Source of the DNA: Trichobilharzia regenti
Lineage: Eukaryota > Platyhelminthes > Trematoda > Strigeidida > Schistosomatidae
Reading direction: 5' to 3'
DNA: 64,000 bases
Assembly: GCA_944472135.2 (NCBI GenBank)
Contig: OX235263.1
Coordinates: 20,451,379 to 20,515,378, forward strand
The notes beneath the pieces are model-generated. The model saw nothing but the letters and a program-made list of their open reading frames with translations. It did not search any database and had not been told where the DNA came from. Position 1 is the first letter of the stretch, and each line of letters begins with the position of its first letter. Position numbers and translations under genes: made by a program. Positions 24,401 through 30,400 of this stretch are shown piece after piece.

Positions 24401-27400
24401 ATAGTCAATTTGTGTATGTATGTGTGTGTGAATTACCTTAGCTTCTACAGTTGCCAAATCTGATTTAATTGCTTGAGCTTGACTAATCAACACGGCATAT
24501 TCTTCCTTATACTTGGCAATACTTTTCTCTAAAGCTCCGATTGTAACTTCAACATTATTTGCCTCTTCTTTATTTTTAGTTGCAGCAGCCTCCAGAGTTT
24601 TTAATTCATTTCTAAGAGGTTCAACCTTCTTTAGAATATCGGCATAATTTATCTAGACAGAAAAGAGGATTAAAAACCGTTTAAAAACAAATAAATAAAT
24701 AAAAATAATGATTGTAAACGCCATACTGGTGTACTGAATACTCCCGTAAACGACCTCGTTCGATCGAGGGTAAGCACACCTACGGTCTTGCACTTGAAAA
24801 GCTTTCATGTGGCGCACACGTTCATAGCCTAAATCACAATGTATGTTCTATTTCCTGTCATCATACGGTGGTGTGTAAATGTCCGGTGCTCACTGACTTC
24901 GTGGATATGCCGGTTTACGTAGGAGAGCTGGAAAACCCAAATTCTTCTAAAACTCCAAAATCCGAAAGGATCATTGAGGAGCTTGTGAACCTGTCTTGGT
25001 TACTGGCGATCATGGGACTGTGCCACTGCCTTGTGGATGCATCCAAGACTCGGCTGATGGCCCCCCAAAGACAACCACTGAGCTTGTGACCAATAAATAT
25101 CCTAGCCCATGTACGAACTATCAGTTTTTGTGTGGCACATCTTTTGGTTCCAAACCTTTTGATTTTGGAAATAATATACACATAATAGTTTTTGTGGTGT
25201 AGGATCGCTAGCTCCACATCCAACCCTCCCTCTTTACCAGTGATTGGGACCGGCTAGAAAACTACTGACTAAGCAAGGTAACAAACCAACCAACAGCCGA
25301 TCGCCGAACAAATATGTAGAAAATGGAGATGGATCGGGCACACATTGAGAAGGTCGTCGAACGACATGGTGCGTCAGGTTCCAGAGTGGAATCCAAATAG
25401 GAAGCAACGAGTGGGTCGTCAGTGCGTGGGTGAAATAGAAGAAATCGTGTGAGGAAGAGTTGAGAGATTGTAAAATAATCGTGGACCCAGCTACAGAAAA
25501 TAGGATAGATTGGAGATGTGTTGTTTAAGCCCTATATTCTTCTCGGAACCGAAGGGGAACGATAATCATTATTATTATATAATAATAATCATAAATCACT
25601 ACCTGGAACTATATAACTTTCAAACTTAATTATCACAGTTCCCATTTGTCGTAGGTGGGTTTTTTTAGAATATTCCAGATGTCCAGGAGATGTACTGAAT
25701 CATTCCTAATGTATATATTTTTAGTAGTTTCGATAAATGAACCAAGCTGCAGTTGTCAGTCTCTCCCTTCATCCTGTTATAGATAGATTTAAAGACTGTC
25801 TCATCTTGAACCACCCTATTTTATGGTTATGTAACTGATATCATATAAAAATTCACAAGAATTGTAACTTAATAACAATTTATTTAGGCTGCAAGTAGCT
25901 TGTGAAAAGTCAACGAAATGGTACTATCTTATTCTGCACTATTTGTTGTTCTTGCCTTATTTAAATAACACGAATCAGAAAGCCGAACGTTTAGAAAACA
26001 GATGAATTGAAAACACACACATACACACACAATACAACCTGATTACGAAATACTGACCTGAGCTATCGCCCATTTCACCATAGGTCCACAAGCACTACTA
26101 GCTCTGTTAACTTTTTCAAAGTTATAATCAGGATTACTGATATACTTTTTCTTCATTGTATCCCGGATACTGTCACTGAAACAGAGAGAGACAGAGAGTA
26201 AGAGGTGTTTAGAATCAAATAATTGTTATCATTAGAAAGCCAACCAAAGTGACACAAATGCACAAATGCAAGTATACATAGAGCAAACAAAAACAAGAAA
26301 TATGCAACATTTAACGCATGACGACGCAAAAAACGCCAACAACTACGTAAAAAACAAAAGAAAGACGACAAATCGTATGAACTACACAGACACATACACA
26401 ATGAAATTACCGTTTCAAGCATAAAATCAATGATGACAGAAAATCATCAATATACAAATGTTGCTTTGCAAGGATTTGATTGGTTTCATCATCAGCTGAT
26501 ATCAGTTAGAAAAACATTGGTAAACCTGGGAGTACTTCCCACTGGAACCAAGGTAGCTACCTAGCTGGTGAGAAATGTTGACCATTAGGGTACACAGCCG
26601 GTTGGATGTGAGGACAAATACTCGCCACGGAGGCGAGTGATCGCGCTATATAATGAGTAGGCAGAAGTTAGAATTCATGGGCTGGTCTTTGGATCGGGTC
26701 CCAGTGGATTAATGGTCTACGAGCTTGTCTTTTAATCGGAAGGTCCTGGATCCAAACCCCCGATGGGTGCGTACTGATGAAGAGCCTCAGCCAGGACATT
26801 AGAAACGCCTGTCCAATACTCCCAGGTCTACCGATGTTTCTCTAACCGATGTCAGCTGATGATGAATTCCTGCAAAACATAGCTAATATTTCTAACAAAA
26901 CAATGATTAGAGAATTTGAAACAAGAAATTATGAAGATGCTTATCAATTCGTAGTGCATTCATTCATTGGAAGAGAACATAGCTGATACATATACATTCA
27001 GTGTAAATACTAAGAGAATGGTATCCGGAAGTTAGGTTTCTTGTTATGCCATTAATGCAAGAAGCAAAACAACTTACGTTACATCATCAGTATTAAAGTT
27101 GACAATACTAGGAACAAATGAATCTTTTACAAGCGTTTTCAAAATTTGATTCCAATCAGTCGATCCTTCTCCCAATAATAAACAGATAGACTCCACTGCC
27201 ATTTTAACAACAGACGGTGGATTTTTCATAGCTCTTATCTCCTGAATATCTCTTTTGCGTATTCCCTCGACAGCTGACAGAAATTAATAATAGTAGTAGT
27301 AGTAATTATAATAATAATAAACAGCGGTGAAACTCGAAACACATTTAAGTAAACATAAACAGCACAGTAATAACACAAATAGGCAAAGAATAAAATGACA

Positions 27401-30400
27401 AGCACCGGAAATTTCTGGCAAACAAAAATAAGCCAGTAGAATTTAGCACAGGAATGTAACAAGTATTTACAAACAAACAAAGTATTGGCTGATGTATGGC
27501 ATAAGGAGCTAGCCAGACACAGTCAGTGAGTCAGCCAACATACGCAACAGGTATTCCTCAACACTCACGTAATATTTTCATTATTGAAATTTACAATCGA
27601 AGGGATAAAGTTGTCACTTATTAAAAAGGAGCGCATTTCTTTCCAGTCCATCTCAGCTTCACCCAACATCGTACAAATAGACTCAATGGTTAATTTCACC
27701 AACTGAGGTGGATTGACGAGAGCACGGACTTCAACCAACTGTGGACGTTTTATCTCAGTGACAGCTAGGATGAGAAATATCATAGTCATTTTTGTAATTT
27801 ATTTATCTAGTTGGTAAGATACTTGAGAACCAACAACTTACACACACATTGTAGGCACGTAGTCCAACAATACTGATAATTCTCAAAGTTGTGCTTATTT
27901 TAATATAAACACATATACTATTTATATCAAAATGCGTGACACGAATACGTTTTCATTGGCATTAACGAATAAGTTGCATTAAATTTACTGCTCATTACTT
28001 TCAGTATTCGTCGTGTTAAAAGATTGTCGCCTTTCGGCAGTGTTCATGCAACCACTTCACATTGTTTGGAATTCTGATAGAAATATATACAGGATTTCAG
28101 TCTTTGAAGTTTCAGTACTATTTCTGTTGTTTTTATGCGATAGAAGTGAGAGCTTGGCGTTCAAACATTCCCACTTTTTTGGGCTTACCGCCGACTAGTA
28201 AGCTGGACAAGGTCTAGTCGTGTGTGCCCCAATTAGGGAATCGAACCCCAAAACCAAGTGGGTGGTGGTTGGAAAGGATTTTATCACTGACCTACGGATG
28301 TACCCATATTTGTGGTTTAAAGTCAAGCATAGGAGAGTGCTTTTGGTTAGTCATAAAGCCAAATGTAACACTATCTCGCAGGAAAAATAAAATATACAAT
28401 AACACTTTATGATAAACCAACTAACAGCAACAAAAACCAGCACCAATCACTATCAACGGGAGAAATTCGGAAGAGGTTACTTCCTTCAACAACAGGCGGA
28501 ACGGATGAAGATGTTAAAAAGTCAGAATCGGAAAATCGAAACAAACTTTCATCACTCTGAAAATCAGTTTGGCAATCATCTGCACTAACTCAGTCAGCAT
28601 AAAGAACAAGATTGGGATTTTCAACACAAATATGAAGTCAGTCATTTCCTCTATATGGATCAGAAAATTGGCGCTCACTTCACCGAAAGCATTTCCAACA
28701 GGCTACTTCAGACTTTAATTAAAAGCTGCCGCCTTTGCTGGCTTCATAATGAAGATCGAATTACCAGGAAGAATTAGCAACAAGAAACTATAGGAACAAA
28801 CTAACGAAGAACCTACTGCTCAACAAATATGCAGGAGATGAACTGGGTACACGCTGATGGAGACCGTCGAATGACATCGCGCACTGGGCCATCGTTTGAC
28901 TGGGACTCGAACAAGATACATCGAGTGGGTCATCCGAGGGTAACATGGAGGAGATAAGCGGCTATGGGCAATCGTCGACACAGCTATAGACGACAGCAGA
29001 AATAGGACAGCGTTGAGATATACTGTTGAAGCCCTAGGTTCCACTCGAAGCCCAAGGGAACAATAATAAATACTTTAAAGGCGCAACAGATAATTACATT
29101 ACATCTCTGTTAGTTATCTATCAAAAAATAGTATATTAAGCAATTAATCTTATGGTCAGTAATCCACTGCATTACTTCCGACTGTACTAGTGAAACAATA
29201 CAGTACAAGCTTTCTTATAATAACACACAATTCAAAAAGAAAACATACCTTGTTTAGCTTCAATAACTGCTGGTTCAACTTGACTAAGCTCTTGCATAAC
29301 TAATGTGCGTTTTTCATTAATATACAATTCTTGATTAGCTAATTCCTCCTGTAACCGCTGACTCATTGTCTTCTTTTTCTCAGCTTCTTGTTGATCTTGA
29401 ACCATTTGCTTTAATTTCTCATTAGCTGCATTATTCATTTGTTCTAGTTCTAAGCTTTTCTGTGTTAAAGATTTCTGCATAACTTCAACCTGGAGGGAAT
29501 TTTTTTTTAAAAAAGGACAATCATAAGATAAGGGAAGATGAATAAGAAGACTTCAAGTGTTGGTTTGCAAAGGGATGAAATTGCAAGCCGACATTAGTTA
29601 TAGAACTACTGGAAAATCAGAGTACTGGACAGCTGTTTCGCCGTACTTCGTGACTCTTCAGAGGTACGCACGCCGTGAATTCTGCCAATTTGTGATATAT
29701 AGACGTCACCACCTGTCAAAGTCACCGGCAAGTATTCGTCCTCACACTAGACCTAGTGGACCCCCCAAGCTGGTCACTTCTCACTAGAACTCTAAGTGGT
29801 ATGTTGTATAAAGCCAGTCTCGAATGAGCATAAGATTATTAATAAAGGGTTTGCAGGATTTAAAACTCCGGTGGGTGCGTATTGCTGAACGGTCCCAAAC
29901 TAGGACAAAAAAGCTCCCCAGTACCCACTAGTTACCCAGTGGTTTCCTTCAAATGACGGAACCTGCAAATAAGAAGTTATCATACTGTACAATAGGAGCG
30001 AAAACAAAAGTATGACTACTATGTGCTAACCTGTTCAACAGTTTCTTTGATCTTCTGCAATCCAATGTGCAAGTGAAGCTGTTGTTCTTCTAAATCTGCA
30101 CGTTTCTCCGTCATTAGACGAACAAAATGAGCAATGAAATCTAAGAAATGTCTCGGTGTAATCCACATGGTGCGTGCACCGCGTTTCTGTAGCCGATGAT
30201 TAGCTTCATGTAGAGTTTGATGTACAAAAACAAAAGCATTTGAAACCATTTCACGAAATGATGGAAATTCGGGTAGTAGGCCTTCGACAACTGAAGGAAT
30301 AATATCAGGAACTTTATAATCAGGGCGTTCCATATCCATTTTGCTTGTAAATTCTTTGCCAACCTGAAATATAAAAAGTTTAAACCAAGTTTAACAATTT

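What the first reader, a model, noticed from the sequence alone, without database searches (positions are those of the whole stretch)
27078..27764. Mutually exclusive exon pair swapping the dynein microtubule-binding segment
Two tandem exons of exactly 196 nt, with the same entry and exit phase, share one upstream donor (29249) and one downstream acceptor (26175). They encode two versions (30 of 65 residues identical) of the stalk end and helices H1-H3 of the microtubule-binding domain. Because 196 is not a multiple of three, including both or neither would shift the frame, which enforces a choice. Both keep the family's invariant positions. The consequence would be two dynein 1 motors with the same ring and tail but different track affinity or stalk register, possibly by tissue or life stage. 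I do not know whether this is described for schistosomes.
Basis: partly seen in the sequence, partly recalled or inferred. Interest (0 to 1): 0.86.

Follow-up and report, generated by a model that had tools for sequence, protein, structure and literature searches.

The report
Dynein microtubule-grip exon swap in flatworms
A blood-fluke gene for the motor protein dynein carries two interchangeable exons for the part that grips microtubules; the pair was already predicted in a related fluke, but comparisons here indicate that both versions are very old in flatworms and that a moth swaps the same piece.

Summary
Exons A (27764-27569) and B (27273-27078), minus strand, are each 196 nt, with GT/AG borders, the same phase and 31 of 66 residues identical. 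They lie in a cytoplasmic dynein-1 heavy chain gene running 63461-7238. Of three schistosome proteins compared, Trichobilharzia szidati is closest. Each exon encodes the end of CC1 and helices H1-H3 of the microtubule-binding domain. Skipping both, or including both, gives a premature stop.

The pair is not new as such: a 2011 paper uses S. mansoni DHC1 as an example of predicted mutually exclusive exons (PMC3228551), without naming the domain. What I add: A-type and B-type exons both occur in other flatworms, down to free-living Macrostomum. Moth isoforms (Ostrinia) differ only in the homologous segment. At mouse R3337, a proposed tubulin contact, all 9 B-type segments scored have Leu or Gln; all 5 A-type have Arg.

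Most likely this is a splice switch producing two dynein-1 motors that grip microtubules differently. The exon choice is well supported by sequence; the affinity difference is inferred. No transcript was examined.

The parts
7238..63461 (-). Cytoplasmic dynein-1 heavy chain gene (extent of matches to residues 1-4728 of the T. szidati protein P0010)
   Evidence: 44 tblastn HSPs of P0010 on the minus strand, 43 in order plus one for exon A
29249..29489 (-). Constitutive upstream exon (stalk CC1, including the E3289 equivalent); acceptor CCAG before 29489, donor after 29249
   Evidence: Sequence and translation, HSP 3267-3349
27765..29248 (-). Intron 1, 1484 nt, GTATGT...CCTAG
27569..27764 (-). 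Exon A, 196 nt: end of CC1, H1, H2, H3 (mouse 3293-3358); keeps R3337
27274..27568 (-). Intron 2 between the alternatives, 295 nt, GTGAGT...GTCAG
27078..27273 (-). Exon B, 196 nt: same segment; Leu at R3337, Asn at K3334; protein 66/66 identical to T. szidati
26176..27077 (-). Intron 3, 902 nt, GTAAGT...TTTCAG
26058..26175 (-). Constitutive downstream exon (rest of the MTBD with the E3378 and R3382 equivalents of H6)

Best explanation
This is a mutually exclusive exon pair in the cytoplasmic dynein-1 heavy chain gene of a schistosome close to Trichobilharzia. One of two tandem 196-nt exons supplies the end of stalk helix CC1 and helices H1-H3 of the microtubule-binding domain, while H4-H6, the ring and the tail are shared (sequence shown; splicing inferred). 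Exclusivity is enforced at least by frame: either exon alone keeps the frame; both or neither gives an early stop, so such transcripts should be degraded (frame shown; decay inferred). What chooses the exon in the nucleus is unknown; I found no U12 signals and no convincing intron-intron pairing. The tree indicates that the two types have stayed apart since before Macrostomum and the trematodes diverged. A keeps the H3 arginine (mouse R3337) that a cryo-EM model places near alpha-tubulin D163; B replaces it with Leu or Gln and carries extra basic residues at 3300 and 3309. The inferred result is two dynein-1 motors that share cargo machinery but have different microtubule on/off behaviour.
For: Exact architecture and frame logic. 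Both forms are MTBDs: ungapped alignment to mammalian dynein-1 and PF12777 hits. A versus B codon-position identities are 36, 47 and 24 of 66, NG86 dN 0.58 and dS 1.66, i.e. protein-level constraint, with dS saturated. E. caproni P0001 holds an A-type (45 of 66 identical to A, 30 to B) followed by a B-type (49 of 62 to B, 27 of 66 to A); M. lignano P0002 likewise (36 to A and 25 to B of 66, then 45 of 61 to B and 28 of 59 to A). In a tree of 39 segments the 8 B rows plus Cichlidogyrus form one clade (99/95) and the 5 A rows another (87/87, not starred). Ostrinia furnacalis isoforms X2/X3 and X5/X6 differ only within the homologous segment. Mouse R3337: A is Arg in 5 of 5; B side is Leu in 8 of 9 and Gln in 1 of 9; other 66-residue rows Arg in 15 and Lys in 2 of 17. 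Tubulin contacts in H1, H3, H6: PMC6629372, passages.
Against: No RNA evidence from this species or any schistosome was available. Three predicted proteins contain both versions in tandem (E. caproni P0001, M. lignano P0002, Spodoptera exigua P0009); I read these as gene-model errors, but real double inclusion through other splice sites is not excluded. 12 of 17 named flatworm proteins in the hit list show B only and 2 show A only (my count), so one form may be minor. The functional claim rests on residue mapping between distant species; the R3337 contact was inferred from a map without side-chain density for most of the domain, and proposed MTBD salt bridges are disputed by a simulation study (PMC4987762, passages).
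Confidence: 0.85

Rival explanations
1. Only one exon (probably B) is used; A is a decaying or very rarely used duplicate.
For: Flatworm proteins in the hit list mostly carry B (12 of 17 B only). The window's A has the longest end branch of those flagged in the tree, 0.44, and has Ser where the other 4 A rows have Arg at 3342.
Against: A is open over its whole length with GT/AG borders. A-type exons occur in Echinostoma, Paragonimus, Opisthorchis and Macrostomum, with R3337 kept in 5 of 5 including the window. A-only models exist in Opisthorchis felineus and Paragonimus kellicotti.
Confidence: 0.08
2. Both exons can be included together through alternative splice sites, giving a lengthened microtubule-binding domain.
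For: Predicted proteins P0001, P0002 and P0009 contain both copies in frame.
Against: With the borders seen here, A+B shifts frame and stops. The residues between copies in P0001 and P0009 look like read-through intron (by eye). Ostrinia isoforms show a clean swap.
Confidence: 0.05
3. The swap is real but functionally neutral: two equivalent versions kept only by drift or regulatory linkage.
For: Both versions score equally against the best mammalian MTBD entry (145.7 and 145.5 bits); the 3306, 3316 and 3320 positions are kept or conservatively changed in both types.
Against: 16 of 66 positions share no residue between 5 A and 9 B-side segments across flatworms, including a proposed tubulin contact; two types this separate are unlikely to persist without distinct roles (inference).
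Confidence: 0.15
4. The flatworm pair arose by a duplication inside flatworms, independently of the insect pair.
For: With all 39 rows, holding the 14 flatworm segments as one clade is not rejected (p-AU 0.26; p-AU 0.14 without the window's A). 66 columns hold little information.
Against: A-type groups with a nemertean and an oyster isoform, 96/82; without Macrostomum A, the single-flatworm clade is rejected at p-AU 0.023, one of several tests I tried.
Confidence: 0.4

Closest known systems
Schistosoma mansoni SmDHC1 mutually exclusive exons (Pillmann et al. 2011, PMC3228551; section 9 read in full, plus abstract and passages)
   Same: Cytoplasmic dynein heavy chain of a schistosome; [quoted passage not shown] Very probably the orthologous pair (inference).
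   Different: There it is a test case for software in one species. Section 9 names no domain or function for it, and the words stalk and microtubule do not occur in the main text. Exon coordinates could not be compared.
Muscle myosin heavy chain MXE cluster 8, loop 2, in flatworms (PMC3912159, passages)
   Same: A mutually exclusive pair kept across Platyhelminthes that swaps a motor's track-binding element.
   Different: Myosin and actin, not dynein and microtubules.
Insect dynein-1 heavy chain isoforms (Ostrinia furnacalis X2/X3, X5/X6)
   Same: Isoforms differ only in the homologous 66/67-residue MTBD segment.
   Different: One insect type has an extra residue (IVxNF form); common origin with the flatworm pair is not resolved.
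Axonemal dynein MTBDs with a flap between H2 and H3 (DNAH7, PMC6629372, passages)
   Same: A different H1-H3 region gives a different microtubule interaction.
   Different: Separate genes with an insertion, not splicing; neither exon here has a flap (ungapped to dynein-1).

Membership tests
Mutually exclusive exon pair | Tandem internal exons, same length, same phase, homologous, GT/AG borders | tested here: met
   196/196 nt, G|CT...AC|T, 31 of 66 aa identical
Mutually exclusive exon pair | One exon alone keeps the frame; both or neither do not | tested here: met
Mutually exclusive exon pair | Transcripts carry exactly one of the two | not testable with these tools
   No RNA reads for this species; indirect support from Ostrinia isoforms
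Mutually exclusive exon pair | A known exclusion device (U2/U12 mismatch, steric block, competing intron pairing) | tested here: inconclusive
   No U12 signals; intron 2 is 295 nt; duplex energy intron 2 x 3 is -129.4, below all 20 shuffles (mean -110.0, sd 7.2, min -124.5); intron 1 x 3 -363.8 (mean -348.6, sd 11.0) and 1 x 2 -112.8 (mean -118.6, sd 4.8) are within shuffles; longest perfect helices 9-10 nt do not exceed 15 shuffles
[quoted passage not shown]
   Both forms ungapped over 105 aa to mammalian dynein-1, form B over 222 aa; PF12777 at 50.3 and 51.0 bits
[quoted passage not shown]
   A: K, R, R, met; B: R, K, L, so R3337 not met in B; B side Leu in 8 of 9, Gln in 1 of 9
Dynein motor with altered microtubule affinity | Measured difference in affinity, speed or run length | not testable with these tools
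   Inference only

The most novel reading that the evidence does not exclude
Protostomes inherited one ancestral splice switch in the dynein-1 heavy chain that swaps helices H1-H3 of the microtubule-binding domain, kept in flatworms, nemerteans or molluscs and insects and absent from vertebrates. Many invertebrates would then run two dynein-1 motor classes with different grip on microtubules from one gene.
Probability: 0.35. Interest if true: 0.85.

Novelty: new member of a known kind. Interest (0 to 1): 0.62.

Why it matters
Dynein-1 is usually treated as one heavy chain tuned by adaptors and regulators (general knowledge, not from a call). A conserved splice choice inside the microtubule-binding domain would be another way to tune the motor, and natural paired variants that differ at a proposed tubulin contact (R3337) would let the grip mechanism be tested directly. 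The flatworm myosin loop-2 pair (PMC3912159, passages) offers a parallel: track binding of both motors tuned by exon choice.

Tried and rejected
Competing RNA pairing as the selection device: of three intron pairs, only intron 2 x intron 3 had a total duplex energy below all 20 dinucleotide shuffles (-129.4; mean -110.0, sd 7.2, min -124.5), and the longest perfect helices (9-10 nt) did not exceed 15 mononucleotide shuffles. One species, AT-rich introns: not claimed. U12 introns: no donor or branch signals seen. A third alternative: each exon's ORF matched only the other at E up to 1e-3; a more diverged copy is not excluded. A second swapped exon elsewhere in the gene: none in the tile control. 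Flatworm-only duplication: not rejected with all rows (p-AU 0.26) or without the window's A (0.14), rejected without Macrostomum A (0.023). Groupings of insect with flatworm types were not rejected either (p-AU 0.205-0.567), so the data cannot decide. The exon A protein search scored nothing (7 candidates); exon B gave 7 proteins of 11 candidates. First-try errors: the upstream exon was cut one base short and the constitutive comparison was off by one; corrected. In one search the downstream-donor row was out of register and is not used.

Literature: 10 of 10 paper searches used. Most listed papers were seen only as listings. Opened: PMC3228551 (outline, section 9, passages) and passages of PMC6629372, PMC6125590, PMC4987762, PMC3912159, PMC5147784 and PMC3583065. 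In these, only PMC3228551 described a mutually exclusive pair in a dynein heavy chain, and I saw no description of an MTBD exon swap. A passage of PMC5147784 says Drosophila Dhc64C is alternatively spliced, without saying where. Two recalled DOIs on related work are not held, and most subscription papers are missing, so this is no proof of absence from print.
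Full report
Observation. On the minus strand, two 196-nt exons, A (27764-27569) and B (27273-27078), sit in tandem between one upstream exon (29489-29249) and one downstream exon (26175-26058). Both follow AG, precede GT, begin inside the same codon position (G|CT) and end AC|T. They translate to 66 residues each with the border codons, 31 identical. A alone or B alone continues the frame; both together stop 88 codons after the upstream junction and skipping both stops 7 codons after it. 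Identities by codon position are 36, 47 and 24 of 66, with NG86 dN 0.58 and dS 1.66: divergence concentrated at third positions, though dS is saturated. Comparing 209 minus-strand ORFs with the window, A and B matched only each other (E about 4e-21); I judged the rest of the 254 off-site rows to be dispersed repeats, by reading the list. In a control of 157 overlapping tiles of the T. szidati protein, 3 of the 7 tiles with two overlapping places are this pair and the other 4 are run-on alignments into adjacent introns, judged from coordinates.

Gene and host. The window holds matches to the whole dynein-1 heavy chain, from residue 1 (63461) to the last residue (7238), on the minus strand. Pooled HSP identity, overlaps and run-on ends included, is 4728 of 5115 to Trichobilharzia szidati (P0010), 4403 of 5138 to Schistosoma guineensis (P0011) and 2117 of 2485 to a partial S. 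haematobium protein (P0003); these 3 of the 17 flatworm proteins were compared. Exon B is 66 of 66 identical to T. szidati. The host is therefore probably a schistosome near Trichobilharzia (inference). P0010 itself carries only B.

What is swapped. Both spliced forms align without gaps to residues 3295-3399 of a 4646-residue mammalian dynein-1 (that it is human is recalled) and reach PF12777 at 50.3 and 51.0 bits, cut-off 24. Mouse numbering, set so that the papers' K3299, R3337, E3289, E3378 and R3382 fall on matching letters, puts the exons at 3293-3358: the end of CC1 and H1-H3 (helix limits from general knowledge of this fold). E3289 (CC1) lies in the upstream exon, and E3378 and R3382 (H6) in the downstream exon (my indexing). 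PMC6629372 (passages) names H1, H3 and H6 as microtubule-contacting, with K3299 near beta-tubulin D427 and R3337 near alpha-tubulin D163. A keeps K3298, has Arg at 3299 and keeps R3337; B has Arg, Lys and Leu there. Identity to the mammalian segment is 37 of 66 for A and 33 of 66 for B, against 30 of 39 in the constitutive downstream stretch. Net charges are -3 for A, -1 for B and +1 for the mammalian segment.

Conservation. The protein search with exon B found flatworm dyneins, and a last search with E. caproni P0001 had 160 hits, of which 120 were listed. Of 17 named flatworm proteins among P0001-P0121, 2 hold both types in the order A then B (Echinostoma caproni P0001, Macrostomum lignano P0002), 2 hold A only (Opisthorchis felineus, Paragonimus kellicotti), 12 hold B only and 1 (Cichlidogyrus) falls on the B side (my count). 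In a tree of 39 segments over 66 columns, 8 B rows plus Cichlidogyrus are one clade (99/95) and 5 A rows another (87/87, not starred). The A clade joins the nemertean Tubulanus X2 and the oyster Saccostrea X1 (96/82). If the tree is right, the split into types predates the split of Macrostomum from the parasitic flatworms. Whether it predates flatworms is unsettled: a flatworm-only duplication is not rejected with all rows (p-AU 0.26) or without the window's A (0.14), but is without Macrostomum A (0.023). Flatworm rows left out of the tree: P0003, P0010, P0014, P0015, P0017, P0030, the B copy in P0002 and the second A copy in P0008; most arthropod rows were left out too.

Type-specific residues. 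At 16 of 66 positions the 5 A rows and 9 B-side rows share no residue. At mouse R3337, A is Arg in 5 of 5, the B side Leu in 8 of 9 and Gln in 1 of 9, and other 66-residue rows Arg in 15 and Lys in 2 of 17. The flatworm B segments left out also show Leu, or Gln for P0002 (read). The B side has a basic residue at 3300 and at 3309 and Asp at 3301, each in 9 of 9. This is a coherent, testable difference; its effect on binding is inference.

Insects. Of three pairs of Ostrinia furnacalis isoforms compared, X2/X3 and X5/X6 differ only between residues 3306 and 3368, inside the homologous segment; X7/X8 share one type and differ elsewhere. 50 of 121 proteins carry a form one residue longer near the end of this segment. 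Spodoptera exigua P0009 contains both forms in tandem. At least this moth thus swaps the same piece, and mixed types across related insect species suggest that others do. Tests of grouping flatworm and insect types gave p-AU 0.205-0.567 and decide nothing.

Mechanism of choice. The exons are 295 nt apart, no U12 signal was seen in the three introns, and intron-intron pairing stands out in one of three energy tests but in none of three helix tests. Frame alone would remove wrong products; the nuclear selector is unknown.

What is known. Pillmann et al. 2011 (PMC3228551; section 9 read in full) present S. [quoted passage not shown] I take this to be the orthologous pair; the coordinates could not be compared. 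Section 9 names no domain or function, and 'stalk' and 'microtubule' do not occur in the main text. Flatworm muscle myosin has a conserved pair at loop 2 (PMC3912159, passages). In the listings of my ten searches and the passages I opened I saw no description of an MTBD exon swap; many papers are not held.

Verdict. The pair itself is already predicted in print for a relative.

Noticed in passing
window 63461-7238 (-): The dynein-1 protein is closer to Trichobilharzia szidati (P0010) than to S. guineensis or S. haematobium, so the window is probably from a schistosome near Trichobilharzia rather than Schistosoma.
   Followed up: yes
window around 2259-3050, 31602-32129, 36759-36963 and 15100-15300, 32600-32800, 50070-50340, 53880-54080, 54640-54880, 60880-61080: Several dispersed repeat families, including reverse-transcriptase-like ORFs, lie in the dynein introns and flank (the reverse-transcriptase reading is by eye).
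   Followed up: no
window 4233-5045 (+): A 270-aa open frame that resembles a retroelement protein by eye only, with what looks like a diverged relative around 20943-21675.
   Followed up: no
P0001 2587-2743, P0002 3004-3138, P0009 3306-3472: Public gene models of Echinostoma caproni, Macrostomum lignano and Spodoptera exigua fuse both alternative segments into one protein, probably annotation errors.
   Followed up: partly
P0008 1058-1123 and 1824-1889: The Paragonimus kellicotti model holds two nearly identical A-type segments about 770 residues apart with motor parts between them out of order, suggesting a scrambled model or assembly.
   Followed up: no
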